In this document: positions 1 to 12,340 of the stretch, in pieces
Numbering within the stretch: the stretch's first letter is position 1
How the letters are laid out: each line of letters begins with the position of its first letter
NCBI GenBank assembly: GCA_017481945.1
Contig: JAFUOJ010000031.1
Location: 1 to 64,000 of the forward strand
Length of the DNA stretch: 64,000 bases
Direction: 5' to 3'
Source of the DNA: Parabacteroides sp.
GTDB lineage: Bacteria > Bacteroidota > Bacteroidia > Bacteroidales > Tannerellaceae
Position numbers and translations under genes: made by a program
Notes under the pieces: generated by a model
Seen by the model: only the letters and a program-made list of their open reading frames with translations
What the model was told of the DNA's origin: nothing
The model's database searches: none

Positions 1-120
1 AAACTCAATCTTGTTCGCACTTTGATTGGGATCGGTCAACCATACGCTCAAACCTTCATTGTAAACTGATCCTGCTACCTTCTCGGATACGACTATCCCA
101 ATGTGATGTAATGTTCTCAT
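1..120 (-). CDS. VOC (glyoxalase-fold) protein, N-terminal fragment
   Basis: The first 40 codons of a gene that runs off the left edge, starting at the ATG whose complement is at 118-120. The start reads MRTLHHIGIVV, and LHHIGIVV is the usual first beta strand of vicinal-oxygen-chelate proteins, with the first His a typical metal ligand. A later DPNQSANKIEF stretch also fits small VOC/lactoylglutathione-lyase-like proteins. It follows the ccsA-type gene by 35 bases on the same strand, so it may be the last gene of the cytochrome operon. The substrate cannot be told from 40 residues. Confidence 0.6.
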   Translation of the reverse strand, partial: MRTLHHIGIVVSEKVAGSVYNEGLSVWLTDPNQSANKIEF

Positions 121-155
121 GACTAATAAATTTAATTTGTTTATAATGATTTCTT

Positions 156-2582
156 TCAATACTTCCACCTTTTTCGAGAAAGAATGGCTAAAACAACTAC
201 AATTCCCAAAGTTAAATAAAGATACAAAAATATTCCATGTATATTATCATTTTGTCCATATGAATGCATTCCACTTAAAAAATAGTTCACTCCGAAGAAT
301 GTCATCAATACAGACGCAAACGCTACTACAGACAATAAATTAAATAACCAAGTATTGTTCCAACGTTTTACCAAATGTAAATGAGTAACTATAGCATAAA
401 CCACCATTGTAATCAATGCCCACGTTTCTTTAGGATCCCAGCCCCAATAACGTCCCCAAGATTCGTTTGCCCACACAGCTCCTAAAAAGGTACCGATTGT
501 CATCAGTGCTAACCCTATCCAAAGAGACATCTCGTTTACAATACTTAATTCCGTTATACGTGCCTTTAAAATCACTTCATTCCTCTTTCCGACAATACTC
601 ATCATAACCATATTAGTTAATCCAATCAAACAACTAATACCAAAGAATCCATAAGCAGCGACAATCACTGCAACATGAAACATCAACCACGGAGATTTTA
701 AGACAGGTACCAACGGATTAATCTCAGGGTCCATCCAATTTAAACTGGAAACAAACAGAATAATTCCTCCAAACAAAGTAGCCAATGCAAAAGTTATTGT
801 ACTTCTACGGACAAATAACAACCCTGCAAAAACAGTAGCCCATGCCACATAAACCATTGTCTCATAAGAATTACTCCAAGGAGCATACCCTCCAATATAC
901 CAACGCATTCCCATTCCATACATGTGATAATGGAAAACTATCAAAACCCCTATACCTAATAACCATATCACCGCTTTCATCCAGCGACTCTGGCGGAAAA
1001 GCATAATAAAAGAAAATACCAACAACAAGCCCCCTAAGACTAAATATCCAATCTTACAATAACGGAAAATCTCCATCTTGTTGTACTTCAACTCTACTTG
1101 TATACGCTCTTTACTAATATCAAGAGTCTTATTTTTAGCTTGTTGATAGGTATCAATCATTCCTACAATTTCATCCGCTTTTGACCAATTTCCACTCTTT
1201 AATCCTTCTTGTACCTCTGATAAATACCAACCTAAAATGCGAGAAACAAACATAGAATCTTTTCCTGAAAAGATTGAAAGGTCATCTCCCGGAGCATACC
1301 ATTTCTGATTGGGATCATCTTCTTTGGGGAAGATATTCAGCATTTGATAATTAATCAACTGATGGAATATATTCAATTGTTCGTCTAACTTCATCAAGTC
1401 TTTATCAAAACGTGTACGCAAAGCAGGCATTTTATTATAGGCCTCTTCCAATTTTTCTTGTAACTTATAATTTCCATTACTATCAAAGACTTGAATATAA
1501 GCGCACTCCCCGTCTGTTAAATCATAGTAGTTTGCCAATTCCGGATTAGATAATGCAATAAAAGGAACTCTCATCCACATATCAGGCATAGCTAAAAGAC
1601 TCAATAAGAATTGATCAGAATTTAAATTCCCTATTTTATCCGATTTGTGTAATTTACGAAGTATTTCAGAAGAGAATGTATTAATTGGCATCATACGTCC
1701 GCTACTCGATTGAACAGGTAATGCTCCAAATCGTTCCGCATGTTCAGGACTCACCTTATACTTCTGTACTGTTTCCAATAAATAGGCCGTATCCTCTTTC
1801 GCCATCATTGGATATACATTTACCAACGAAAGTAATATTATTGTCATTTTTGCAATCTTACACAACTCCTTCAATCGACGACTTTGATGCATAAAACGTG
1901 AATCTTTTCCTACGAAGCAGAATACCAAACCTATTACAAGTAGTAAATAACCAGTATAGGTAATATTACGACCTGCAACATCGGAATTCACAGACAATAT
2001 AGTTCCTTGTTCATCTTGGTCATAAGAAGCTTGAAAGAAACGGTACCCCTTTATATCCAATACATTATTCATGAATATACGAGCCTCCTGCTTCTGCCCA
2101 TCTACATGAACTATAACTTCACTTTCATAAGAAGAAGGACTGGTAGAACCCGGATAACGAGTTAATGTAAATCTCTTTAATTCAACGGAAAAAGGTAAGG
2201 TGTGAATAACGGTTTTACCAGCGGATTGAACCGCTATTTGATTACTAGTTTCCCCTTCACGTAGATGTAAGATTCCCTCTTGGCTAAAAAGAAAAGAGGT
2301 CAATGCCCCCAATAAAATCACTATAAATGCGAAATGAGTCAGGATGAATCCCCACTTTCCTTGTTTCAGAAAATGATATTTAATAACAACTACAACAAAA
2401 TTAACTACTAAAAGAAATTGGAGAAAGAAAAATAAAGGAGAATAATAAACTATGGTCTTTGCAACAGCGGTACCATGATACTTCTCAATAAAAGTAGCAA
2501 CAGCCAGACCAAAAGCATAAATCAGTAACAAAACTATTGTCGTTACAAAGGAAGAGAATATTTTTTCGAGTTTAGCTTTCAT
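156..2582 (-). CDS. Cytochrome c biogenesis protein, ResB-CcsA fusion
   Basis: 808 residues. Membrane protein of the System II cytochrome c maturation pathway, which carries haem across the inner membrane and attaches it to CxxCH motifs. The N-terminal third is ResB-like: membrane segments near residues 10-30, 50-70 and 75-100, then a periplasmic stretch. The C-terminal half is CcsA-like, with many helices, the WWD haem-handling motif (WGRYWGWDPKETWAL, around residue 715) and conserved His in MLFHVAV and VTHLHLVKRW. Fused ResB-CcsA proteins are usual in Bacteroidetes. It lies directly downstream of two genes for CxxCH proteins, so it probably matures them. A hairpin at 2602-2628 separates it from the gene upstream and may lower its expression. 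Confidence 0.92.
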   Translation of the reverse strand: MKAKLEKIFSSFVTTIVLLLIYAFGLAVATFIEKYHGTAVAKTIVYYSPLFFFLQFLLVVNFVVVVIKYHFLKQGKWGFILTHFAFIVILLGALTSFLFSQEGILHLREGETSNQIAVQSAGKTVIHTLPFSVELKRFTLTRYPGSTSPSSYESEVIVHVDGQKQEARIFMNNVLDIKGYRFFQASYDQDEQGTILSVNSDVAGRNITYTGYLLLVIGLVFCFVGKDSRFMHQSRRLKELCKIAKMTIILLSLVNVYPMMAKEDTAYLLETVQKYKVSPEHAERFGALPVQSSSGRMMPINTFSSEILRKLHKSDKIGNLNSDQFLLSLLAMPDMWMRVPFIALSNPELANYYDLTDGECAYIQVFDSNGNYKLQEKLEEAYNKMPALRTRFDKDLMKLDEQLNIFHQLINYQMLNIFPKEDDPNQKWYAPGDDLSIFSGKDSMFVSRILGWYLSEVQEGLKSGNWSKADEIVGMIDTYQQAKNKTLDISKERIQVELKYNKMEIFRYCKIGYLVLGGLLLVFSFIMLFRQSRWMKAVIWLLGIGVLIVFHYHMYGMGMRWYIGGYAPWSNSYETMVYVAWATVFAGLLFVRRSTITFALATLFGGIILFVSSLNWMDPEINPLVPVLKSPWLMFHVAVIVAAYGFFGISCLIGLTNMVMMSIVGKRNEVILKARITELSIVNEMSLWIGLALMTIGTFLGAVWANESWGRYWGWDPKETWALITMVVYAIVTHLHLVKRWNNTWLFNLLSVVAFASVLMTFFGVNYFLSGMHSYGQNDNIHGIFLYLYLTLGIVVVLAILSRKRWKY

Positions 2583-2601
2583 CTATTTTTAATATAAAGT
2601 G

Positions 2602-2628
2602 CACCGAGGCAGAAATTCTACCTCGGTG
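2602..2628 (-). terminator. Intergenic hairpin (attenuator or weak terminator)
   Basis: A perfect 8-bp stem, CACCGAGG pairing with CCTCGGTG, around an 11-base AT-rich loop. It lies in the 63-base gap after the large cytochrome/FGE gene and before the ccsA-type gene. The downstream T-run on the minus strand is broken (TTTATATTAAAAATAG), so it may terminate only partly or protect the mRNA 3' end. Confidence 0.55.
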
Positions 2629-2645
2629 TCTCTATTTATAAATTA

Positions 2646-5600
2646 TCAATCTTCAATGATCATACGGAAACCAACATTGAATACCGGCTGATAAGGATAA
2701 TAAGCCTTACGAGTATGTGCCGTTGCGTATTTTGGACGGTCAAAGAATGAACCACCACGAGCTACTTTATATTCAGATGTTTCTTTTGTCTTCTCATTGT
2801 AAGGATAAGAAACATAGTCAGAACGGGTCCACTCAGCCACGTTACCGTGCATATTGTACAAACCAAATGGGTTGGCTTCATATACTTTACCACCGACCTG
2901 AACTAAGCTACCATCATCAACACTTTCTTCTTTTGGAAGATAAGTATAATACTTATACCAGCGATTAGACTTATCCATCGGTTTCGGGTCTACCCCATAA
3001 ACAGCGAATAATAAAGTTGTCTTATCTGCTAAATTTTCTTTCTTACCAAAATCAGTGTGTGTATCACCATACCAGAAATCTTCGTTATTACCAGCACGAC
3101 AAGCCCATTCCCACTGTGCTTCTGTTGGAAGTGTGATATTCAAACCTGTCTTTTCACTCAACTTCTTACAATACTCCATTGCTTCGTTGTAGCTAACGCG
3201 GATAACCGGTTGTTCTGGCTGATTAGCTGGATATCCCTGGTTTACATGGTCTTTCCACTGCTGATCCATGTGACGACTATCATGCTCCGGACAGATCACA
3301 TTATACTGTTCATTAGTTGTTTCCAACTCAGCCATCCAGAATCCTTTGCTAATTTTTACTTTAGCTGTCGGATAAGCGTCTGGTTCACCAGCATAGCTAC
3401 CCATCACAAATTCACCGGCAGGAATACGTACGAAATTGATTTTTACACCAGGTGCAATTTCAACCACTTTACAAGTTTCGGTTTCCTTTGCCAACATTTC
3501 TTTGATCTTAGCAGCATCAAACGGCCAACCTTTAGCCTTCACATTCTTAACCTTTACATCCGCAGCCTTTTCTGGCATAACCGGAGTAATAGGACCCTTA
3601 TTCTTCAAATAGTCAGCATAATCAGCAATTTCCTTTTGCCAATCTACACCTGCTCCATTTGCATACTTATCAGTTAATTCTTTACGGCGTTTGATCTGAT
3701 CAAATCCCTGATACGGTATTACCTCTTTACCAATCACGTTCGCATTGAAATAACCTTTATCTGGAGCATTGTAGTCAATCCAGTTATACAACTTTCTCCA
3801 TTCTTCGTCTGTCAACTTCACATTATAGTGACCTTTCTTCAACATACGAACCAAATCACTTGTGTTTGGATGATATTCATACGGATACAATACCAACATA
3901 TCTCCTTCACCTCCTTGACGGTGGATATACGGATGAATGTTCAAATAAGAGGTACCGTAACCTAACTTATCTTTTTTACCACCACGCAAATCAAATGCTT
4001 TACCTTCACCATTGTGACAAGCAATACATGCACGGTCTAAAATTGGTTGAATTTCCAAATCAAAAGTGAAAGAACGTACACCACCTTCAGGTAAAGTCAA
4101 AGAAACCGGTGCTTTCTGAGAAGCAATCACACGCTTCGGAATCGCAATCTGATTCTGATCTTCATGACAACCGATACAAGATACAACTTCTCCCGGCTGA
4201 CCAGTTACCCAACTACGCATCCACTGAATAGCAACACCATCCTTATCTAATGGTTGGATAGAAATCGGAGTGTTAGCTGGAGCTTTGAAAATAACAGAGC
4301 CATCTTCTTCTACAGGGACAGTACCCAAAATACGTTTAATATCCCAACCTGATTGAATACCATGCCAATTGTGGTCAGAAGTAGTCTTCAAGTAAGCATA
4401 TTCATACGCATGTAAACGAAGTGCCTTTACAGTTCCACGAGGAATACCTTTCAAACCTTCTCCTTCATAAATATCCTGAATAAAGAAAGTAGCTTCCTTT
4501 TCATCCAATTTTACACGGTCAGGTATTGACGGAGGAGTTTTAGTTTCACGAACAATAATCGGACTGATGTAACCTTCTCCTTCTGATTTCATTAAACAAG
4601 TCACATTATCATATACGTCTACCAAATACAATCCCCATAAAGCATGTGGATCTAATTTAGCAGCCACCAAGAAATATTTATCGTTTAATGGAGTCGGTTT
4701 TACAAACTGAGGCCATACACCATTTACTAATTCGTCTTTAATAACCTCTTTGATTTCACGATTACGATGAGGTATTTCCTGCAACATACCAGCAGCACCC
4801 TTACGAGCTTTCGTCGGATCAAATAAGATTAGACGACCAGAACGAGCAACACCATGATGACCAGAAATAATACCAACGAATGCAGAAGAATGTCCTGGTA
4901 ACGGCTGAATATCAAATGTACTATTTGGGAACATAGAACCACTACCGTATAAAGCTTTCTGCTCTGTACCGTCCGGATTCATAGTCATCACAATACGAGT
5001 AAAATAATGAGTTAAATCAGTATATTCCCAACGAGTATACATAACTTTACCATTGTGCATAATAGTCGGATTCCAGTTAGCATCTTGGTCAAATGTCAAA
5101 CGACGCAAACTTTTATCTTTCGGATTATACAACATCATATTACCCACAATGTCAGCACCACTTACACAAGGCACACCTTGATAACCAATATTTGAGATTG
5201 CCAATACACGACCATCCGGCAAATAAGTTCCATCATAGAACTCAATATCCGGCTCTTCGCATTCCACCATTGGTTTCAATCCCGTACCATCCAATTTAAC
5301 TTCAAAGATGTTCCAATGTTTGTTTTCCTCTGTCTGAGTAAACATCACACGGTCTGCATCCCAATGTAATTTCAAATCAGAAATTGGAGAACCATTTTTC
5401 GGAGCATAGATAGAACGTACTTGAACATCCCCACGAAGGTTTGTCAACTCTACGATATCAGCTTTAAAGCCAGCACGAGGAGCTGAAGACTGGTTACTCC
5501 AGTTATTTGTTTGTGTACCTAAAGACGGAGACATGATATGATGTGCCTTTGCTCCCAATTGATAACGAGCAGCCACAACTTTATCAATATCCAATAACGG

Positions 5601-6644
5601 GTTACCCAACAAAATAGCCCGTTTACATTCTAACGCTTTCGTTGCATTATTGATTGCCTGTTCGTCTCCAGAGTAGATACCATCGAATCCCTTTTGAGTA
5701 AGCACCGACAATTCATTCAACATAGGCTCATATTTTGCAACATCATAACCTTTCTGTTTCTTCATATCTGCAAAAGCCAACTTAACAGCTTCTACATTCA
5801 ACCATTCCAAATCTTTTTGAAGATCTAAAACAGTACGAACAGTTGTATACAATTGCAAAGCATTACGTAGACGTTCTTCCGGAGTAGAACCTGAAAGGCT
5901 TTCCAATGCTTTTTTATAATATGAACCATCTTTCAACTCAGAAACAATAGTCGCAATCATTTCTTTTTCAGCGTCTTCTCCCTGAGTAGTCAACCAAGAT
6001 TCCAATCCATCAGCGTCAGCAGCTAAAGCTCCTAATTCTTTTGGATATTGTTTCAATAAATCATCCGCTAACTGCTTTGGATAAACATTCATAATACGGA
6101 AATTAACCGTACCTTTCTGATATTTATCTACAAGACCCGCTTCTGTTTCAAAACGAACATATTTCTTGTCAATGTTGTAAATTAATACAGCATTTGCATG
6201 ACAAAAGATACCATGATCATATTTCTTACCTCCTACAATCAATGGATCTCCATACATTGTTTCATTACGGAAAGCTCTTTTTGCCCCAGTCTTTTCAAAA
6301 ACAGGATCTAATTCGTCCAACCAAACAACGGAACCATCTTCCTTGATTAAACGAGCATTTACGAATGTACTCCAATCATCGCCAGTACCATCAGGACCTC
6401 CAGAAGCAATTAAAACTAACTGGTCTTGTCCCTTTACATTGGCTGACATGACAGTCGCTTTCTCAAAAGAGCGAACAACAGGAGAAATTACAGGCATACC
6501 CACCTTAGCCAAGTTTGACCGTAATCCCAACTTTGCCTCTATTGAAGCGTCCATCCAAGTCTTCGCTTTCTTGGTTTTCGGAGCAGCCGAAACCAAGAAA
6601 GGTAAAGACAAGAATAATGTTATTAATAACTTAATATTATTCAT
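2646..6644 (-). CDS. Multidomain di-haem c protein: NPCBM, hydrazine-synthase-alpha-like and FGE-like domains
   Basis: 1332 residues with a signal peptide (first ~20 residues, ending LVSAA), so exported. Parts in order: an NPCBM/NEW2-like beta-sandwich (about 85-185; GGKKYDHGIFCHAN), a helical stretch (about 200-350), and a region from about 370 that reads like the middle domain of hydrazine synthase alpha (GDVQVRSIY, TRWEYTDLTHYF, PGHSSAFVGIISGHHG). Two c-type haem sites follow, CIGCH at 823-827 and CIACH at 873-877. Last is a formylglycine-generating-enzyme/SUMF1-like domain (about 1068-1332; AGEFVMGS, MHGNVAEW, ARGGSFF, NVGFR). The catalytic Cys of true FGE is missing: the usual CR site reads HTRKAY. 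This architecture is more familiar from Planctomycetes/Verrucomicrobia than gut Bacteroidales. Catalysis is unknown; a periplasmic redox role is inferred. Confidence 0.85.
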   Translation of the reverse strand: MNNIKLLITLFLSLPFLVSAAPKTKKAKTWMDASIEAKLGLRSNLAKVGMPVISPVVRSFEKATVMSANVKGQDQLVLIASGGPDGTGDDWSTFVNARLIKEDGSVVWLDELDPVFEKTGAKRAFRNETMYGDPLIVGGKKYDHGIFCHANAVLIYNIDKKYVRFETEAGLVDKYQKGTVNFRIMNVYPKQLADDLLKQYPKELGALAADADGLESWLTTQGEDAEKEMIATIVSELKDGSYYKKALESLSGSTPEERLRNALQLYTTVRTVLDLQKDLEWLNVEAVKLAFADMKKQKGYDVAKYEPMLNELSVLTQKGFDGIYSGDEQAINNATKALECKRAILLGNPLLDIDKVVAARYQLGAKAHHIMSPSLGTQTNNWSNQSSAPRAGFKADIVELTNLRGDVQVRSIYAPKNGSPISDLKLHWDADRVMFTQTEENKHWNIFEVKLDGTGLKPMVECEEPDIEFYDGTYLPDGRVLAISNIGYQGVPCVSGADIVGNMMLYNPKDKSLRRLTFDQDANWNPTIMHNGKVMYTRWEYTDLTHYFTRIVMTMNPDGTEQKALYGSGSMFPNSTFDIQPLPGHSSAFVGIISGHHGVARSGRLILFDPTKARKGAAGMLQEIPHRNREIKEVIKDELVNGVWPQFVKPTPLNDKYFLVAAKLDPHALWGLYLVDVYDNVTCLMKSEGEGYISPIIVRETKTPPSIPDRVKLDEKEATFFIQDIYEGEGLKGIPRGTVKALRLHAYEYAYLKTTSDHNWHGIQSGWDIKRILGTVPVEEDGSVIFKAPANTPISIQPLDKDGVAIQWMRSWVTGQPGEVVSCIGCHEDQNQIAIPKRVIASQKAPVSLTLPEGGVRSFTFDLEIQPILDRACIACHNGEGKAFDLRGGKKDKLGYGTSYLNIHPYIHRQGGEGDMLVLYPYEYHPNTSDLVRMLKKGHYNVKLTDEEWRKLYNWIDYNAPDKGYFNANVIGKEVIPYQGFDQIKRRKELTDKYANGAGVDWQKEIADYADYLKNKGPITPVMPEKAADVKVKNVKAKGWPFDAAKIKEMLAKETETCKVVEIAPGVKINFVRIPAGEFVMGSYAGEPDAYPTAKVKISKGFWMAELETTNEQYNVICPEHDSRHMDQQWKDHVNQGYPANQPEQPVIRVSYNEAMEYCKKLSEKTGLNITLPTEAQWEWACRAGNNEDFWYGDTHTDFGKKENLADKTTLLFAVYGVDPKPMDKSNRWYKYYTYLPKEESVDDGSLVQVGGKVYEANPFGLYNMHGNVAEWTRSDYVSYPYNEKTKETSEYKVARGGSFFDRPKYATAHTRKAYYPYQPVFNVGFRMIIED

Positions 6645-6671
6645 AAATATAGATTAAGGCGTTAGCAATAA

Positions 6672-7424
6672 TTATAACGCAGCCTTAGAATTAGTAAAGC
6701 GTAAACCAGCATTATCGTGGTAACAAGCCCATTCATCTACTACAGCACCTTCAGGACCAGCCATCATAAAGTGGAATGTACCCAATTCTTTCAGGCGAAG
6801 AATATCACCAACTTTCTGAACTACAAAGTTCTTACTCTTAATCGGACCATGACCTGCAGGAATAGCCGGAGCGTTAGGAGTTGCTTCACCTACTTCAGAG
6901 AAATTATAAACCCAACCTTTTTCAACCATCCAAGATTCATGCTTTGCAGGGAAATCTGTCTTTACATGAGCATGTTCAGGAATCATTTGACCTGGTAACA
7001 AATAGATAGCATGAGCAAAATATCCATGTTCTGGGTCATTGATCCAGAAGATACCACCCATACCTACATTTTCGAAGTCACCTAAACCAAAATCTGTTAC
7101 CCACATTTCTTTAGCCATAAAATCAGTAAAAGGAACACCATAGAAAGCTAACATATCTTTCATTGCTTCCATTGCAACGTCCTGTTGAAATTTGCCGTCT
7201 TTATAGAAATCGGCATTTGTAAATTTCTTTGCGTACTTCATATCTTTTTTACATTTAGTGTTAGTATTACAACATTGTTCAGTTGGGCATTGGGCAGCAT
7301 TTGCACATCCATCACCACTCTTTGGGCAAGTCCCATTTCCACTGTTAGAACCCGAGTTACAACAAGAAGCCATAGATACCAATAAAGCACCCATAGCTAC
7401 AGATTTAATCCAATTCTTTTTCAT
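6672..7424 (-). CDS. Cupin-like lipoprotein with Cys-rich N-terminal linker
   Basis: 250 residues. Lipoprotein signal with the lipobox ending at Cys21 (SMASC). The following linker is unusually rich in Cys (22, 33, 40, 46, 51, 52 and 58), spaced by Gly, Asn and Ser. The rest (about 70-250) has a cupin-like pattern with possible metal ligands in PEHAHVKTD, a nearby Glu, and a late His in GTFHFMMAGPEGA. Related cupin proteins, some resembling sugar isomerases, occur in Planctomycetes; this is an impression from memory. It sits 27 bases upstream of the large di-haem gene and 32 bases downstream of the chorismatase-like gene, so it is co-transcribed. Function unknown. The Cys tail could bind metal, form disulfides or anchor a redox partner. 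Confidence 0.75.
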   Translation of the reverse strand: MKKNWIKSVAMGALLVSMASCCNSGSNSGNGTCPKSGDGCANAAQCPTEQCCNTNTKCKKDMKYAKKFTNADFYKDGKFQQDVAMEAMKDMLAFYGVPFTDFMAKEMWVTDFGLGDFENVGMGGIFWINDPEHGYFAHAIYLLPGQMIPEHAHVKTDFPAKHESWMVEKGWVYNFSEVGEATPNAPAIPAGHGPIKSKNFVVQKVGDILRLKELGTFHFMMAGPEGAVVDEWACYHDNAGLRFTNSKAAL

Positions 7425-7456
7425 TTTTATTTATTTATTAGTTAATAATATTTGTC

Positions 7457-8557
7457 TTATTCAATAGCAATACCCTCTATCTCTATTAGCAGTTCATCAC
7501 GGCAAACATCCGCCCACATGTAAGAAATAGGAATATCCAAGTGATACCCTTCTAATAATTCACGTGCTTCTTCGTAAAAAGATTGTTCTTTCAGATAAAC
7601 ACGTAACATTTTCAGCTTCGCTTGACCAATCAATTCTGCTATATTTTCCATCGTAATATGTAACTGGCGAGCAAGTCCTACCCCTGTTAGACTTTCTTCG
7701 CCACGAATAGCAGCTGTACCTGAAATATAAACAATTCGACGATCATCGAATGTCATACTCTTTGCCCGTTCAAATTTGGGAGTTGCTTTTTTCTTATGAG
7801 CAACTTCCAAAACCTGTTCTGAATAAGCATGAGCTGCCACCTGCAACTTATTATCAATCGGAGTTGCATAACATTCTGGACGAGAAAAGACAACTGCGTC
7901 TACATCCACTAATACACCTCCTAAATTTGCCCCGATACCAGTTGCTGCTGGATACCCAATATTCCACTTTGTCCTTTCATAAAAATCAGAACGGACATTA
8001 TTGAACATTTGATAATGTTGATCACCTCCAGAAAAGCTAGTAATCCGCTCGATATAATTCCACTGACGAATAATATTGTTAATAGGGAAACCTTCTTGAC
8101 GCATAACATCTCCCAACATTCGGAAAACTTCCGTTGATTGTTGCAAAATGCCAAAGTTAATCACATCTCCATGAAATCCACCTGCAAACAAAAAACGTCC
8201 ATCCCTATTCGCTAAAGTTACATATGGAAAACCATTATAACGGCGAAAAGTCAATTGTTCTGAGTCTTCCGGTGTATAACTATGAGCTTCCAATATTAGC
8301 CCAGCATTTAATGGAGGTTGAGATACATAACTTAATACCGGCTCATGATTACCATAATATTTACGTATCTTTTCACGTAAAATAATTCGACGAGTTACAT
8401 ATTCTTCATTATTTGCAGGCTTACCAAAAAAGGCTAATCGTAAGATTTGTTCATCCTTAGGTAACTGTGCAAGTAATGCGTCTACCATCTCCCCAAACGA
8501 AGGTAATAACTCCGTCGTATATATATTATAATGTATCTTATCGCAATAATTCTTCAT
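7457..8557 (-). CDS. Chorismatase-like (FkbO/Hyg5/XanB2) RidA-fold protein
   Basis: 366 residues, no signal peptide, so cytoplasmic. The sequence fits the duplicated RidA-fold chorismatases, which hydrolyse or lyse chorismate to dihydroxycyclohexadienoate or hydroxybenzoates. A central YPAATGIGANLGG motif precedes a C-terminal RidA-like domain (about 270-366) with ISGTAAIRGEES and TMENIAELI. The end, ADVCRDELLIEIEGI, matches the family's ICR...LVEIEA active-site strand with its catalytic Glu. An N-terminal FAGGFHGD stretch is also family-like. It sits 5 bases from the upstream di-haem gene, inside a cytochrome operon, which is an unexpected place for it. A hydroxybenzoate product would suit an IclR-controlled operon, but this is inference. 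A RidA-like imine deaminase role is the alternative. Confidence 0.75.
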   Translation of the reverse strand: MKNYCDKIHYNIYTTELLPSFGEMVDALLAQLPKDEQILRLAFFGKPANNEEYVTRRIILREKIRKYYGNHEPVLSYVSQPPLNAGLILEAHSYTPEDSEQLTFRRYNGFPYVTLANRDGRFLFAGGFHGDVINFGILQQSTEVFRMLGDVMRQEGFPINNIIRQWNYIERITSFSGGDQHYQMFNNVRSDFYERTKWNIGYPAATGIGANLGGVLVDVDAVVFSRPECYATPIDNKLQVAAHAYSEQVLEVAHKKKATPKFERAKSMTFDDRRIVYISGTAAIRGEESLTGVGLARQLHITMENIAELIGQAKLKMLRVYLKEQSFYEEARELLEGYHLDIPISYMWADVCRDELLIEIEGIAIE

Positions 8558-8562
8558 GGTTA

Positions 8563-10338
8563 CTATAATGAATTAACGTATTCCGTAAGTGCTTCAATAT
8601 CTTTTTGAGATACTTTTTTCTCAATGCCATGTTTATATACACTAAAAACTTCTTCCATTGTTGCAGCCCGTCCATCAAACAAATAAGGAGCCGTACGCCA
8701 AACTTCGCGTAAAGTCGGAGTATCCCAACCTTTTTCAAATTCGACATTTTCTCCAATACGGTGCATTTTCAAATCTGTATAATAAACACCACTATGACAT
8801 TCTCCACACTTCAACTTTTCAAAAACCTTTTTCCCCTCTTTAGCTTTCTCAGACAATTCACCATTTACTAAATAGGGACTTGGAACCGCTTCTAAAGATT
8901 TTACATAAGCGTCAACACATACTGCGTCCTCTTCCGTTACTTCAAAAAACTGAATAAACTTAAATCCGGCACGAACAGCCCATTCTGCCGTTTCGCGAAT
9001 CCCGGAAATCATACTTGGAGGGGTTGGATGACTATATAATAAGCTCTTACAATTCTTTGAGTTTCCAACTCCATCATTCATTAAATCCCAGTTCATACCA
9101 TCACTACGTGCACCACCTGGATGGCAACCGTTACAACTTTGCCAATTCTGGAAACAATGAGAAGCGTCATTAAAATAACGTTCCCCTTTATGAACCATTG
9201 TTTCTTCACGTCCAGGATTCAGTTCTACGGATGTAAACTCATTGGTATTTGTATCCAAAATATTTAAGACATCTGTAAAGTATGTCGGCACAAACAACTT
9301 ATCTCCCCCCAGAACAATATTTCTAGGACCATTGCCAACCACAGGAATACGTTCACGCAAACCATACAAGAAGTTCAAATCATAATCTAAAGCAGCTTTA
9401 TTCGGATAGTTCAAGAACTTCTCTAACATAGCTTTATGATCAATCACACTTACATCATGTGTACCCGAATGGGAAATATATACCTTCTCATCATTGCAAG
9501 CAATACTCCAAATACCCGCAGCTCCTCTCTCTGGCTCATCTACAATAATTGCCCCCAAGAACTCTTGCTTTTCCACATCTATCACACTAAAAGCACTGGT
9601 ATTCATCCATCCTTGTTGCAACTGAGAGGTAGGAACAGTAAAACGCCCCAAATTATGAGAGACGTAAACATATTTACCATCAGGTGTAATACAAATACCA
9701 CGTACTGCATTACTACCATTAGCCAACTGAATATCTTTCACTTTTGTGAAACCAGCCATTTCAATAACAGAAACACTTGCTGCAACATGATCTACATCTG
9801 CACGTTGTGCTGGTAAAAAGTTTGTTACAAACAGATATTTTCCATCTTTGCTAAAAACTGCAGATTTAGGTTCACGTAAGACTTTAATCGTACGAACCAC
9901 TTGCTTCGTCACGGGATCCACTTCTGTTACCGTATTCTGAAACTGATTACATACATATATGTACTTTTTATCTGGACTATATATCGGAGAACAAGCCCCA
10001 GAACCTGTCAAAACAGATCCCTCTTCTTGTCCTGAGTCCAAAGATAAAAAGTGTAATCGTCCAACTTTTTCAAAAGTGGTTACAAATGCTTTATTTCCAT
10101 CAACTAATACCCCCGTTGGTGTATCTTCTAATGGATAAGAACGCAATAAAGTCTTCCCATCTGAAGAAAAAACATCCAATCGTTTCATTCCTTTTTCAGT
10201 CATCACTAACTCTCCTTTTTCACTCAACTTTATGTCGGTCGGGAAAAAAGGAGGACTCCCCGCTGAAGCAGCTGATAAGCAACAGCATACTATAGCTGTT
10301 AGGAATGATCGTCTAAATATATTTCTTTTTATACTCAT
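8563..10338 (-). CDS. YVTN beta-propeller di-haem cytochrome (MauG/CCP-like C terminus)
   Basis: 591 residues with an export signal (residues 1-26, ending AASAG). Residues about 25-375 form a YVTN/WD-type beta-propeller with repeated blades such as YSPDKKYIYVCNQ, FSKDGKYLFVTN and ITPDGKYVYVSH. The C-terminal part (about 385-591) is a cytochrome c peroxidase/MauG-like di-haem module with CNGCH at 402-406 and CGECH at 511-515, plus FDGRAATMEEVF, typical of this fold. The product is periplasmic or surface-bound. It starts 9 bases after the iclR gene and ends 5 bases before the chorismatase-like gene. Such propeller-cytochromes oxidise cofactors or small molecules in other bacteria; the substrate here is unknown. 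Confidence 0.88.
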   Translation of the reverse strand: MSIKRNIFRRSFLTAIVCCCLSAASAGSPPFFPTDIKLSEKGELVMTEKGMKRLDVFSSDGKTLLRSYPLEDTPTGVLVDGNKAFVTTFEKVGRLHFLSLDSGQEEGSVLTGSGACSPIYSPDKKYIYVCNQFQNTVTEVDPVTKQVVRTIKVLREPKSAVFSKDGKYLFVTNFLPAQRADVDHVAASVSVIEMAGFTKVKDIQLANGSNAVRGICITPDGKYVYVSHNLGRFTVPTSQLQQGWMNTSAFSVIDVEKQEFLGAIIVDEPERGAAGIWSIACNDEKVYISHSGTHDVSVIDHKAMLEKFLNYPNKAALDYDLNFLYGLRERIPVVGNGPRNIVLGGDKLFVPTYFTDVLNILDTNTNEFTSVELNPGREETMVHKGERYFNDASHCFQNWQSCNGCHPGGARSDGMNWDLMNDGVGNSKNCKSLLYSHPTPPSMISGIRETAEWAVRAGFKFIQFFEVTEEDAVCVDAYVKSLEAVPSPYLVNGELSEKAKEGKKVFEKLKCGECHSGVYYTDLKMHRIGENVEFEKGWDTPTLREVWRTAPYLFDGRAATMEEVFSVYKHGIEKKVSQKDIEALTEYVNSL

Positions 10339-10347
10339 GGCATTTAT

Positions 10348-11151
10348 CTAATTTTTCTTACTATATCCCAATTCAAAAGAGATTGTCTGGGCAGTCGCTT
10401 TTACACATACAGCATAAGTTCGAATAACGTCATCCGCCAAACGATCTTTCGGTCCTGATATCCAAATAGCTCCACAAGGATACCCTGTATAATTAAAAAG
10501 TGGTGCTCCTATACAAATTACCCCATTTAATTCTTCTTCATTGTCCATCGCATACCCCAATGTCCGTACCCTCTCTAACTCTACCAAATAGTCTTCACGA
10601 GAAGTAATAGTCCGAGCATTATACCGAGTAAATTCCATATACGATAAATATCGTTCACGAACCGTATTGGGCAAATATGCCATTATAGCTTTACCAGGTG
10701 CAGAACAATGTAATTCAAAATTCTTTCCTGGAGACAAGACGAACCGAAATGTATGACATCCCTGCGCCTGTTCTATAAAAATTCCCTTTTGTTCTCCTAA
10801 TACTCCAAAACAAGCTGTTTCCTTTACTTCATCACGTAAATCCCGCAACCGAGGTAAAACCGTCTCCAACAAATTATGTTCATTCAACGGTCTAAATGCC
10901 AAAGTTAGTAATTTACGAGATAACTTGTATCTTTTTGTTTCATCATTATACAACAAATAATCTAAACGCACCAAAGTATTTAAGATTCGATAGGCCGTAG
11001 TTTGTGAAATTGCAAGCTCCGATTTAATTTCCTGAAGAGTTCTTCCTTGAGAATGAAAAGACAGATATTCAAGTACAGAAATCCCCTTCTCAAGATTCGG
11101 TACCTTGTAGTTCTCCTCTGATTTTTCCATATTTGGAAATACATTTTCCAT
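10348..11151 (-). CDS. IclR family transcriptional regulator
   Basis: 267 residues. N-terminal winged helix-turn-helix (about 18-80; ISVLEYLSFHSQGRTLQEIKSELAISQTTAYRILNTL read in sections) and a C-terminal GAF-like effector domain (about 95-260) with the family motif HCSAPGKAIMAYLP. IclR proteins bind small organic acids, often aromatic ones. As first gene of a run of five or more tightly packed genes, it probably controls its own operon. A second in-frame ATG at 11130 is an equally good start: the DNA between the two ATGs is part of a phased repeat that looks like an operator, and MEKSEENYK would then begin the protein. Confidence 0.9.
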   Translation of the reverse strand: MENVFPNMEKSEENYKVPNLEKGISVLEYLSFHSQGRTLQEIKSELAISQTTAYRILNTLVRLDYLLYNDETKRYKLSRKLLTLAFRPLNEHNLLETVLPRLRDLRDEVKETACFGVLGEQKGIFIEQAQGCHTFRFVLSPGKNFELHCSAPGKAIMAYLPNTVRERYLSYMEFTRYNARTITSREDYLVELERVRTLGYAMDNEEELNGVICIGAPLFNYTGYPCGAIWISGPKDRLADDVIRTYAVCVKATAQTISFELGYSKKN

Positions 11152-11177
11152 ATTTGAAATACAATTTCAGATTTGAA
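11124..11177. promoter_or_regulatory. Three phased operator-like repeats at the iclR start
   Basis: Three copies of a TTTCCATATTTGGAAA-like half-palindrome begin at 11124 (TTTCCATATTTGGAAA, 16 bp, near-perfect dyad), 11145 (TTTCCATATTTGAAA) and 11165 (TTTCAGATTTGAA). The spacings of 21 and 20 bp are about two helical turns. They overlap the possible iclR start codons and the leader, as expected for autoregulation by an IclR protein. No binding evidence; inferred from position and symmetry. Confidence 0.5.
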
Positions 11178-11178
11178 T

Positions 11179-11186
11179 CAAATGTA
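11179..11186 (-). promoter_or_regulatory. Candidate -7 promoter element for the iclR/cytochrome operon
   Basis: TACATTTG on the minus strand fits TAnnTTTG. A TTTTTTG stretch lies upstream but at a short distance (about 13 bases), so the -33 box is poor. It lies next to the phased operator-like repeats. Confidence 0.4.
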
Positions 11187-11277
11187 AAAAGAGAAGTAAC
11201 AAAAAAGAAAAAGATGTTTACAAAAATTCGTTAAGTATGTCGTAAAACATAATTCATATCCTTTCTCATCAAAAAAA

Positions 11278-11311
11278 TACCCGGAAGCTAAATTAATTTA
11301 ACCTCCGGGTA
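11278..11311 (-). terminator. Rho-independent terminator of the sdaA/GH43 unit
   Basis: Stem TACCCGGA / TCCGGGTA with further pairing across an AT-rich loop. On the minus strand it is followed by a run of seven T (complement of 11271-11277). It lies 33 bases after the GH43 stop codon, so it ends that transcript before the iclR promoter. Confidence 0.85.
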
Positions 11312-11344: not shown

Positions 11345-12340
11345 TTATTTCTTAATCCGCTGTGCAGCTACTCCTTCCCTTGTCATTTTAATTGGCTGTA
11401 TGAAGCCGTTTTCGTCAAAGATCATCTTATCAATACAAGTTACACGAGCGTCTCTAGCCTTTTCTTCTATAGGACGACGGTGATATACAATATAGTAATC
11501 ATCAGTATTAGGTATATGCAATACTGAGTGATGTCCCGCTCCTGTCGCTATCGTTGAATCTTGTTGTAAGATCTTTGCTACACGATTAAAAGGACCAAAT
11601 GGAGAATCGGCAATCGCATAAGCAACTGCGTAGTTCGGTCCAGTCCAACCTCCTTCACTCCACATAAAATAGTATTTCCCATTCTTTTTAAACATAAACG
11701 GACCTTCTACATAATTTTCCGGAGTCACCTCTTTATATAAACTTCCATCTTCAAAAGGTTTCAATCCGGTAAAATCTTCATTTAGAAGTACCATGTTACA
11801 ATGTCTCCAACCACCATAATACATATAATAAGTACCGTCATCATCCCGAAATACAAACTGATCAATCGGTTGTGCTCCATTCACGATATCATTAATAAGC
11901 GGTTTGCCAATTAAATCCTTATAGGGACCTTCAGGGCGATCACTAACAGCAACTCCAATACCTCCTACTTCTCCTTCATGCACATCATTTGCACCAAAGA
12001 AGAAATAATATTTACCATCTTTACGAACAACAGACGGAGCCCACATCGCACGTTTCGCCCACTTAACCTCTGTTGTATCAATAATATTAGAGTGCTTTGT
12101 CCAATTCACCAAATCCTTAGATGAAAAACAATCAAAATAAGTTTGTTTCTCAAACTTATCACTCCAAGTCGGATAAATCCAATAGGTATCATCATATATA
12201 ATACCTTCAGGGTCTGCATACCATCCTTGAAGAATCGGATTTCCACTAGTAACAACCTCTTCCATTGATTGTTGTTTAGGTTGCCCGCAAGACCAAAAAG
12301 CCGCAGAACATAAAAGGGCGTATAAACAATTTTTCTTCAT
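11345..12340 (-). CDS. GH43-type five-bladed beta-propeller glycosidase lipoprotein
   Basis: 331 residues. Lipoprotein signal with Cys18 (lipobox AFWSC), so anchored in the cell envelope. Single GH43/GH62/GH117-superfamily propeller. Visible catalytic landmarks are the Asp base in YADPEG (Asp43), the AMWAPSVV strand, and the Glu acid in YVEGPFMF. The length fits a single-domain enzyme. Likely substrates are arabinan, xylan or galactan side chains, but the subfamily cannot be set by eye. It follows the serine dehydratase gene by 12 bases, an odd pairing, and ends at a clear terminator. Confidence 0.85.
   Translation of the reverse strand: MKKNCLYALLCSAAFWSCGQPKQQSMEEVVTSGNPILQGWYADPEGIIYDDTYWIYPTWSDKFEKQTYFDCFSSKDLVNWTKHSNIIDTTEVKWAKRAMWAPSVVRKDGKYYFFFGANDVHEGEVGGIGVAVSDRPEGPYKDLIGKPLINDIVNGAQPIDQFVFRDDDGTYYMYYGGWRHCNMVLLNEDFTGLKPFEDGSLYKEVTPENYVEGPFMFKKNGKYYFMWSEGGWTGPNYAVAYAIADSPFGPFNRVAKILQQDSTIATGAGHHSVLHIPNTDDYYIVYHRRPIEEKARDARVTCIDKMIFDENGFIQPIKMTREGVAAQRIKK

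What the first reader, a model, noticed from the sequence alone, without database searches (positions are those of the whole stretch)
1..11151. Uncharacterised IclR-headed c-type cytochrome operon with a chorismatase-like gene
Seen: six same-strand genes with gaps of 9, 5, 32, 27 and 63 bases: IclR regulator, YVTN-propeller di-haem cytochrome, chorismatase/RidA-fold protein, Cys-rich cupin lipoprotein, NPCBM/hydrazine-synthase-like/di-haem/FGE-like protein, ResB-CcsA; a VOC gene follows. Four CxxCH motifs lie in two exported proteins. Known: IclR regulators often sense aromatic acids; XanB2-type chorismatases make hydroxybenzoates; CcsA matures c-haem proteins. Inference: an exported redox pathway using or producing a small aromatic or quinone-like cofactor, with its own maturation gene. 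I know of no described pathway with this set. The two large exported proteins and the cupin resemble Planctomycetes/Verrucomicrobia proteins, so transfer from that group is possible.
Basis: partly seen in the sequence, partly recalled or inferred. Interest (0 to 1): 0.78.

Follow-up and report, generated by a model that had tools for sequence, protein, structure and literature searches.

The report
Hydrazine-synthase-like sugar operon in gut bacteria
Gut Bacteroidales carry a conserved operon whose two exported haem proteins are relatives of hydrazine synthase, the key enzyme of anammox bacteria, but here they sit among sugar-processing genes, which suggests what the unexplained non-anammox relatives of that enzyme may do.

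Summary
In detail: six same-strand genes with the stated gaps and four CxxCH motifs. The identification changes. The 591-aa protein is a fused beta-gamma homologue, and the 1332-aa protein an alpha homologue, of hydrazine synthase (HZS). The cupin lipoprotein is lyxose-isomerase-like. The operon is conserved across Bacteroidales and runs on, past the contig end, into VOC, DhaK, DhaL, an LsrF-type thiolase and a propeller lipoprotein. HZS-diagnostic residues are missing, so it should not be filed as hydrazine synthase. In 8 of 11 loci read, paralogues of the alpha-like protein lie near glycan-utilisation genes, and a second HZS-like set sits by a sugar kinase and DeoC. Best reading: the exported redox step of a sugar catabolic pathway; the reaction is unknown. 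The chorismatase-like gene keeps its catalytic residues and, in most loci read, neighbours CcsBA or a di-haem cytochrome gene. Non-anammox HZS homologues are already published (PMC12758564), function unknown. My searches found no description of this gene set; structure prediction never ran.

The parts
1..168 (-). VOC-family gene, cut by the contig end; the complete gene is in L199 11427-11741 (same genome, contig C13)
   Evidence: bases 1-141 are an exact overlap with L199 11622-11762
156..2582 (-). CcsBA (ResB-CcsA fusion), System II cytochrome c synthetase; the only PF01578 match found in this genome (83% complete)
2646..6644 (-). HzsA-like exported protein, 1332 aa: NPCBM + beta-propeller/HZS_alpha + two haem c motifs + FGE-like domain
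   Evidence: PF18582 1.6e-37, PF08305, PF03781; 5c2v_A
6090..6326 (-). NPCBM domain (residues 107-185)
4161..4436 (-). HZS_alpha middle domain (residues 737-828)
4164..4178 (-). haem motif CIGCH (residues 823-827), matches the haem alpha-I motif of HZS
4014..4028 (-). haem motif CIACH (residues 873-877), matches the haem alpha-II motif
2658..3434 (-). FGE/SUMF1-like domain (residues 1071-1329); no Cys in its last 75 residues
   Evidence: sequence
6672..7424 (-). Cys-rich cupin lipoprotein, D-lyxose-isomerase-like; lipobox Cys21; H151, H153, E163, H218 invariant in 28 of 28
7457..8557 (-). chorismatase-type protein (FkbO/Hyg5 fold) with Glu359, Cys352 and Gly280 at the Hyg5 Glu334, Cys327 and Gly240 positions
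8563..10338 (-). HzsBC-like exported protein, 591 aa: YVTN propeller (HZS beta-like) fused to a MauG/CCP-type di-haem domain (HZS gamma-like)
   Evidence: NF052342 105.5 bits; 5c2v_B, 5c2v_C
9121..9135 (-). haem motif CNGCH (residues 402-406), gamma-I position
8794..8808 (-). haem motif CGECH (residues 511-515), gamma-II position; distal His570 kept in 41 of 42
10348..11151 (-). IclR-family regulator, first gene of the operon
11155..11169 (-). candidate IclR operator TGAAATTGTATTTCA just upstream of the start codon; TGRAAN5-7TTYCA lies within 60 nt of the IclR start in 37 of 46 loci (4 such boxes in the whole window)
11171..11183 (-). palindrome ATTTGATTCAAAT, seen in many of the 46 upstream regions
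11179..11186 (-). TACATTTG, fits the Bacteroides -7 box TAnnTTTG (consensus recalled)
11221..11247 (-). upstream element TTTTACGACATACTTAACGAATTTTTG, similar in the related loci printed
11279..11310 (-). inverted repeat (terminator-like) between the GH43 gene and the operon, so GH43 is probably not part of it

Best explanation
The operon encodes an exported tetra-haem complex built on the hydrazine-synthase plan (HzsA-like plus fused HzsBC-like), made for sugar chemistry and not for hydrazine. Proposed flow: a surface or periplasmic lyxose-isomerase-like lipoprotein interconverts an aldose and a ketose; the HZS-like complex, perhaps holding the sugar or glycan with its NPCBM domain, carries out a haem redox step on it; the product enters the cell, is phosphorylated by DhaKL and cleaved by the LsrF-type enzyme to DHAP plus a small fragment; IclR senses an intermediate. 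CcsBA and the chorismatase-type protein are a cytochrome-support pair. Shown: gene identities, synteny, haem motifs, loss of HZS-specific residues, association with carbohydrate genes. Inferred: periplasmic complex formation, sugar as substrate, order of steps, operator function. Not known: the reaction and its direction (oxidation or reduction).
For: HZS homology of both proteins. Conserved operon continuing to VOC-DhaK-DhaL-LsrF-propeller lipoprotein; the own genome has VOC-DhaK-DhaL-LsrF on another contig. LsrF-type family above its NCBIfam cut-off (438 against 297 bits, on L033). Of 59 genomes, 23 have both HzsBC and LsrF, 3 HzsBC only, 1 LsrF only, 32 neither (at 1e-60, 65 at 1e-30; Fisher p 4e-12, relatedness ignored; within the genus 22, 2, 1, 10). 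Lyxose-isomerase-like cupin. A second HzsA-HzsBC type sits with an FGGY kinase (above the XylB cut-off in L183), Zn-ADH, DeoC (above cut-off in L183) and propeller lipoprotein. In 8 of 11 loci read with other HzsA-like paralogues, carbohydrate genes by Pfam lie in the locus: SusD (L203, L204, L205, L207, L073), GH88 (L207, L073), GH2 and an alginate-lyase-family gene (L073), GH3 (L090), sulfatase (L072), fucosidase (L206).
Against: Five of 47 well-flanked loci have only IclR-HzsBC-Cupin-HzsA, and 9 of 10 genomes of reduced or variant loci show no LsrF at 1e-40 (some are incomplete MAGs), so the kinase/thiolase half is dispensable. Three of 11 paralogue loci (L070, L109, L208) show no carbohydrate gene by eye. 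L072/L073 and L203/L205 are pairs of like loci, so the 8 are not independent. NPCBM binding, the isomerase activity and the substrate are untested. In the other phylum, in the 10 of 26 loci whose neighbours I looked through, I saw no consistent sugar genes (only two of those neighbours were Pfam-tested).
Confidence: 0.5

Rival explanations
1. Nitrogen chemistry is kept: the complex reduces NO or hydroxylamine, or makes an N-N bond, as hydrazine synthase does, for detoxification or as an electron sink in the gut.
For: Overall homology to HZS alpha, beta and gamma; gamma-I and alpha-I haem motifs and the gamma-II bis-His pair are kept.
Against: The segment with gamma-Cys165 and gamma-Asp168 is missing in 73 of 73 homologues aligned and gamma-His144 reads Ile in 42 of 42 operon copies. 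No Tyr within ten residues after the alpha-I CxxCH of the window protein. The neighbours are sugar enzymes; only 6 of 24 HzsBC-bearing genomes of the genus have an NrfA match.
Confidence: 0.12
2. One reading: the chorismatase makes a hydroxybenzoate that serves the haem proteins as redox mediator or cofactor precursor, and the operon's main business is this aromatic-linked redox chemistry.
For: Catalytic residues kept in 31 of 31 operon copies, 8 of 8 HzsBC-linked copies elsewhere and 11 of 11 further copies. Chor is in 7 of 26 HzsBC loci of another phylum. Chor is directly followed by CcsBA in 10 of 11 Bacteroidales loci L200 and L220-L229, twice after a DHOR di-haem enzyme. The 10 genomes asked whose operon lacks Chor all have a Chor homologue elsewhere at 1e-15.
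Against: No aromatic catabolism or prenylation gene seen in the operon; Chor is missing from 14 of 47 well-flanked operons; genomes without HZS genes were not asked for Chor, so one search has no negative control; two more Chor copies, in L181 and L102, have no CcsBA next to them, and CcsBA in L230 and L231 has no Chor; DhaKL and LsrF are unexplained by it.
Confidence: 0.2
3. The HzsBC-like protein is a MauG/MbnH/CCP-type di-haem enzyme (peroxidase or protein-modifying), and HzsA is its partner or target.
For: NCBIfam hits to MbnH (47.6 bits) and MauG (37.1 bits) families; PDB hits to a di-heme enzyme and a CCP.
Against: The HZS beta-gamma, gamma and beta models score higher (105.5, 71.0, 69.3 bits); the position of the CCP/MauG Trp (named in PMC12758564) reads Ile in 42 of 42 (Trp in 4 of 31 others); gut anaerobes (recalled); no substrate protein seen.
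Confidence: 0.13
4. The operon scavenges autoinducer-2-like or Maillard-type deoxy-dicarbonyls: DhaKL stands in for LsrK, VOC for LsrG, with an LsrF-type thiolase.
For: LsrF-type family above cut-off, next to a kinase and a small VOC protein; Chor-CcsBA-VOC-LsrF without HZS genes in L200.
Against: No Lsr-type receptor or transporter gene seen in the operon; does not explain haem proteins or isomerase; in L200 DhaKL is not in the cluster.
Confidence: 0.08

Closest known systems
Hydrazine synthase of anammox bacteria (HzsA, HzsB, HzsC; PDB 5C2V)
   Same: alpha-like and beta-gamma-like proteins encoded together, two CxxCH motifs in each, propeller plus di-haem domain, gamma-II bis-His pair
   Different: beta and gamma fused (as in Scalindua japonica, per PMC12758564); gamma-Cys165, gamma-Asp168 and gamma-His144 missing; no Tyr591 counterpart; added NPCBM and FGE-like domains; sugar-type neighbours
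Non-anammox HZS homologues, clades I-IV of Hagglund et al. 2025 (PMC12758564; sections 7, 8 and the first part of 12 read)
   Same: adjacent alpha and fused beta-gamma genes, HZS key residues lost, function unknown; the paper names Bacteroidota in its beta-gamma tree
   Different: its co-localised examples in the text are Planctomycetota, Syntrophobacter, Paludibaculum and Opitutus; the words Verrucomicrob-, Akkermansia, chorismat- and FGE are not in its main text; clade I keeps gamma-Cys165, ours does not
LsrK-LsrG-LsrF autoinducer-2 breakdown (recalled)
   Same: kinase plus LsrF-type thiolase (above family cut-off)
   Different: DhaKL in place of the FGGY kinase LsrK, VOC protein, IclR regulator, exported haem complex
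Hyg5-type chorismatase (PDB 5AG3; PMC7170507, passages read)
   Same: sequence match over the C-terminal two thirds, Glu334, Cys327, Gly240
   Different: below the TIGR04444 cut-off (91.5 against 325 bits); linked to c-type cytochrome genes, not to natural-product genes
D-lyxose ketol-isomerase (PDB 7NZO, 2Y0O)
   Same: cupin profile match, four metal-ligand positions
   Different: exported Cys-rich lipoprotein, no Pfam match

Membership tests
Hydrazine synthase | alpha and beta-gamma subunit homologues encoded together | tested here: met
Hydrazine synthase | four c-type haem motifs, two in alpha and two in gamma | tested here: met
Hydrazine synthase | third covalent haem link gamma-Cys165 and the distal gamma-Asp168 | tested here: not met
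   segment absent in 42 of 42 operon and 31 of 31 other homologues aligned
Hydrazine synthase | gamma-His144 at haem gamma-I | tested here: not met
   Ile in 42 of 42 operon copies; alignment of this stretch differs
Hydrazine synthase | alpha-Tyr591 as proximal ligand of haem alpha-I (His+4) | tested here: not met
   window has Asn at His+4 and no Tyr in the next ten residues; Asn831 is at least 90% conserved; ligand named in PMC12607021
Hydrazine synthase | zinc ligand alpha-Cys303 | tested here: inconclusive
   the region does not align to 5c2v_A; PMC12758564 says it is not universal in anammox bacteria
Hydrazine synthase | gamma-II bis-His ligation | tested here: met
   H515 42 of 42, H570 41 of 42
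Hydrazine synthase | NCBIfam cut-offs of the HZS models | tested here: not met
   beta-gamma 105.5 against 1250 bits, alpha 47 against 800 bits
Hydrazine synthase | hydrazine formation | not testable with these tools
   needs purified protein
Hyg5-type chorismatase | catalytic Glu334, subfamily Gly240 and Cys327 | tested here: met
   roles in PMC7170507, where the third subfamily Gly was not tested by me
Hyg5-type chorismatase | family model cut-off (TIGR04444, 325 bits) | tested here: not met
   91.5 bits
D-lyxose isomerase | three His and one Glu metal ligands of the cupin (roles recalled) | tested here: met
   H151, H153, E163, H218 invariant in 28 of 28, aligned to 7NZO and 2Y0O
LsrF thiolase (NF006081) | family cut-off | tested here: met
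   438 against 297 bits for the L033 copy; own-genome copy 594.7 bits to the operon profile
Formylglycine-generating enzyme | C-terminal catalytic Cys pair (motif recalled) | tested here: not met
   no Cys in the last 75 residues of the window protein
DhaK/DhaL dihydroxyacetone kinase | Dak1 and Dak2 domains | tested here: met
   PF02733 and PF02734 in L033; own genome L199 by the operon profiles

The most novel reading that the evidence does not exclude
A new class of exported haem enzyme system for carbohydrates: hydrazine-synthase-type complexes that carry out a redox step on sugars or glycan fragments in the periplasm of gut Bacteroidales, with lineage-specific kinase and class I aldolase or thiolase partners (DhaKL-LsrF; FGGY-DeoC), and with a chorismatase-type enzyme serving as a partner of cytochrome c synthesis. 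Anammox hydrazine synthase would then be one specialised offshoot of a broader family.
Probability: 0.35. Interest if true: 0.88.

Novelty: new variant of a known kind. Interest (0 to 1): 0.72.

Why it matters
PMC12758564 states that no protein with another experimentally confirmed function was among the top structural hits to HZS alpha (section 8); what the non-anammox relatives do is open. These operons are in cultured gut bacteria, for example Parabacteroides goldsteinii, P. gordonii, Bacteroides salyersiae and B. clarus (record titles), so the question becomes testable by gene deletion and growth screens. The recurrent pairing of a chorismatase-type gene with the cytochrome c synthetase gene CcsBA, including outside HZS contexts, is an unexplained link between chorismate and cytochrome c.

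Tried and rejected
Recent transfer from PVC bacteria: tree and GC give no support; an old relation is not excluded, since the tree is drawn with a midpoint root, two long-branched rows of the other phylum (L161, L165) fall on the Bacteroidales side, and L096 (a MAG titled Verrucomicrobiales) branches beside the operon copies, by transfer or contamination.

CcsBA as a private maturation gene: rejected, genus-wide. GH43 gene 11345-12340 as operon member: rejected (terminator-like repeat; among the 80 named loci a relative of it at 60 bits or more shows only in L038). FGE-type catalysis of the C-terminal domain: no Cys (motif recalled). Chor as part of the sugar pathway proper: less likely, since it pairs with CcsBA without sugar-pathway genes in L225 and L227; L200, L228 and L229 keep an open question because MFS and GH130-type genes follow there. 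NrfA as the cytochrome client: no NrfA match in the window's own genome (83% complete).

Limits of the counts: my ORF picker keeps one frame per place and missed real genes (no HZS label in L159 and L170, no HzsBC label in L162 and L172, although one search had HzsBC hits there; another frame at the kinase place in L220-L222). The order and phylum samples scored at most four candidates per genome. For some searches the HzsA alignment A7, and for the other structure calls the HzsBC alignment A1, was offered.

Literature: 10 searches, seen as listings. No description of this gene set was found; one search gave a long, mostly unrelated list of which 15 were shown. The library holds only open-licence PMC papers and no preprints. 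Opened: PMC12758564 (outline, sections 7, 8, part 1 of 2 of section 12, a word search), and passages only of PMC12607021, PMC7170507, PMC12423496 and PMC4433059. The original HZS structure paper (Dietl 2015) was not read; ligands come from PMC12607021 and PMC12758564.


Full report
What is in the window. The window starts at base 1 of contig C24 of the genome G000, so the VOC gene is cut. The genus of G000 is taken to be Parabacteroides in that sense.

Identity of the two haem proteins. The 1332-aa protein carries NPCBM, HZS_alpha (1.6e-37) and FGE-like domains. The stretch around its haem motifs matches the alpha subunit of Kuenenia hydrazine synthase (HZS; E 7e-7 with residues 700-960; E 5.7e-7 with a 27-sequence profile; E 3.3e-4 with the whole protein). 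The 591-aa protein matches the NCBIfam model of the HZS beta-gamma fusion (105.5 bits, far below its cut-off of 1250). In the PDB it matches the beta and gamma subunits (4.8e-18 and 7.6e-17; 9.1e-26 and 4e-19 as profile); one S-layer propeller scores higher for the propeller part.

Not a hydrazine synthase by its residues. By PMC12607021 (passages) and PMC12758564 (sections 7 and 8), HZS has gamma-Cys165, gamma-Asp168, gamma-His144 and alpha-Tyr591 at its active haems. In an alignment of 42 operon copies and 31 other homologues with the gamma subunit, the stretch with Cys165 and Asp168 is missing in all 73, and His144 reads Ile in 42 of 42 operon copies and Ile (13), Val (6), Ser (5), Trp (4), Leu (2) or Thr (1) in the 31 others. 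The placing of His144 is less sure, because searches align this stretch differently. The gamma-II bis-His pair is kept in the operon copies (H515 42 of 42, H570 41 of 42). A Cys near haem gamma-I, C430, is in 42 of 42 operon copies and 2 of 31 others; it could be a new haem link, untested. After the alpha-I motif the window protein has Asn at His+4 and no Tyr in the next ten residues (Asn at least 90% conserved).

The other genes. The cupin lipoprotein is D-lyxose-isomerase-like (7NZO 7.6e-15, 2Y0O 9.2e-11), with H151, H153, E163 and H218 invariant in 28 of 28 (ligand roles recalled). The chorismatase-like protein matches Hyg5 (1.4e-15) and keeps Glu334, Gly240 and Cys327 in 31 of 31 operon copies, in 8 of 8 copies near HzsBC elsewhere and in 11 of 11 further copies. 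Their roles come from passages of PMC7170507. The FGE-like domain lacks a C-terminal Cys.

The operon is longer and conserved. Of 80 named loci (best 80 of 91, found through HzsA), one search shows the order IclR-HzsBC-Chor-Cupin-HzsA-CcsBA-VOC-DhaK-DhaL-LsrF-propeller lipoprotein in many records titled Bacteroides, Parabacteroides, Tannerellaceae and others, and a shuffled order in three Rikenellaceae-type records (L094, L100, L103). Of the 47 loci with enough flank, 14 have all eleven genes and 6 all but the last. DhaK, DhaL and the LsrF-type gene were named by Pfam and NCBIfam on L033. In G000 itself VOC-DhaK-DhaL-LsrF lies on contig C13. Window bases 1-141 are identical to C13 bases inside and just before VOC, but on C13 an HlyD-like gene (by eye) lies upstream in place of CcsBA: an assembly branch, from two strains or two copies. 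Of 59 relatives (own genome included), HzsBC (1e-30) and LsrF (1e-60) are both present in 23, HzsBC alone in 3, LsrF alone in 1, neither in 32 (Fisher ignores relatedness).

Regulation. Directly before the IclR start lies TGAAATTGTATTTCA (11155-11169); the pattern TGRAA-N5-7-TTYCA is within 60 nt of the IclR start in 37 of 46 loci, against 0.077 per kb over the named loci; the window has 4 such boxes. A palindrome, a TAnnTTTG box (Bacteroides consensus recalled) and a further upstream element recur. The reduced four-gene version in Bacteroides (L046, L047, L060, L110) has nearly the same operator region, so it probably answers the same signal; the reduced L057 differs.

Why sugars. (a) Lyxose-isomerase-like cupin, DhaKL and LsrF-type thiolase in the operon. 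(b) A second HzsA-HzsBC type in the same genus and in Bacteroides sits in a cluster with a Zn-dehydrogenase, DeoC and the propeller lipoprotein (L183, L201, L202, L220-L223) and an FGGY kinase (seen in L183, L201, L202, L223; in L220-L222 my ORF picker took another frame there); the kinase (400 against 380 bits) and DeoC (263 against 117 bits) of L183 pass their cut-offs, the others were judged by sequence likeness. (c) Of 11 loci read with other HzsA-like paralogues, 8 have carbohydrate genes by Pfam: SusD in L203, L204, L205, L207 and L073, GH88 in L207 and L073, GH2 and an alginate-lyase-family gene in L073, GH3 in L090, a sulfatase in L072, a fucosidase in L206. L072/L073 and L203/L205 are pairs of like loci, and SusD in L203 and L205 is some genes away. 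Against: L070, L109 and L208 show no such neighbours by eye; 9 of 10 genomes of reduced or variant loci show no LsrF at 1e-40. LsrF and DeoC both cut deoxy-type sugar phosphates (recalled), which would fit a haem step that makes or handles a deoxy-ketose; this is a guess.

The chorismatase puzzle. In 11 Bacteroidales loci (L200, L220-L229), Chor is directly followed by CcsBA in 10; the exception L224 has a hemerythrin-domain gene next. Eight of these (L220-L227) were chosen by Chor, L228 and L229 by CcsBA, L200 by LsrF. Two more Chor copies, L181 (next to HzsBC) and the distant one in L102, have no CcsBA beside them, and L230 and L231, chosen by CcsBA, have no Chor. In L225 and L227 the pair follows a DHOR di-haem oxidoreductase, a porin and a one-haem protein, in L225 also an imelysin, with no HZS gene in the locus. 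In the phylum of G354 (a MAG titled Verrucomicrobiales), 47 of 240 genomes have HzsBC at 1e-20. In 26 loci fetched there, an HzsA-like gene is labelled in 12 and Chor in 7 (L156, L169, L171, L174, L175, L177, L190; L175 and L177 are near-copies); my ORF picker gave no HZS label in two of the 26. The 10 genomes asked whose operon lacks Chor all have a Chor homologue elsewhere, six of them only a distant one (below 210 bits); two genomes with operon Chor served as positive controls, and no genome without HZS genes was asked. I read this as a chorismatase-type partner of c-type cytochromes, mechanism unknown. A paper search for chorismatase with cytochrome c listed five papers; the one opened (PMC12423496, passages) is about something else.

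Place in the genome and history. A CcsA-family gene is in 34 of 35 genomes of the genus. In G003 and G009, which show no HzsBC, the order is SdaA-GH43-CcsBA, with 85, 71-72 and 59-61% identity to the window's genes. The window has SdaA-GH43-[IclR-HzsBC-Chor-Cupin-HzsA]-CcsBA. This fits gain or loss of the five-gene block as a unit at this place. In the HzsBC tree (54 rows, the operon rows thinned) the 22 operon rows plus L096 form one group (100/99); the operon rows alone are weakly supported (65/28). HzsBC at 1e-30 was found in 17 of 295 genomes of the order sample and in 1 of 296 of the phylum sample, the own genome counted in both, with at most four candidates scored per genome.

Verdict. 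The finding is real and more interesting than stated: an HZS-like complex in gut bacteria with a sugar-type setting. HZS homologues outside anammox bacteria, and their pairing, are already published (PMC12758564), so I rate it a new variant of a known kind. The function is inferred; structure prediction could not be run.

Noticed in passing
window 1-141; L199 11622-11762: Exact 141-bp overlap between the window's contig end and an internal part of contig C13, with different upstream genes (CcsBA or an HlyD-like gene): an assembly branch suggesting two strains or two copies of the VOC start.
   Followed up: partly
L230 80-4750, L231 5614-10444: SdaA-GH43-CcsBA without the five HZS-block genes, an apparent empty site of the window's operon; in both, GH43 and CcsBA overlap by 4 bp.
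   Followed up: partly
L225 4310-12132, L227 5973-12937: Imelysin (L225), DHOR di-haem oxidoreductase, porin, one-haem protein, chorismatase-type gene and CcsBA in a row: a second cytochrome cluster with the chorismatase.
   Followed up: partly
L224 9258-11135: A further chorismatase-type gene next to a hemerythrin-domain gene in a genome that also has the operon.
   Followed up: no
window 8563-10338, residue C430: A Cys close to haem gamma-I, present in 42 of 42 operon copies and 2 of 31 other homologues; could be a third haem link in place of HZS gamma-Cys165.
   Followed up: no
L096 1543-6515: A MAG titled Verrucomicrobiales carries HzsBC-HzsA at 59-61% identity to the window's copies; transfer or contamination.
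   Followed up: no
L183 2264-3123, L201 17446-18308: Two small DUF6905 membrane-type proteins side by side before the FGGY kinase (Pfam-tested in L183 only); perhaps a transporter.
   Followed up: no
L200 5619-12962, L228, L229: Congeners without HzsBC keep Chor-CcsBA, partly with VOC and LsrF, followed by an MFS transporter and a GH130-type gene (Pfam-tested in L200 only).
   Followed up: partly
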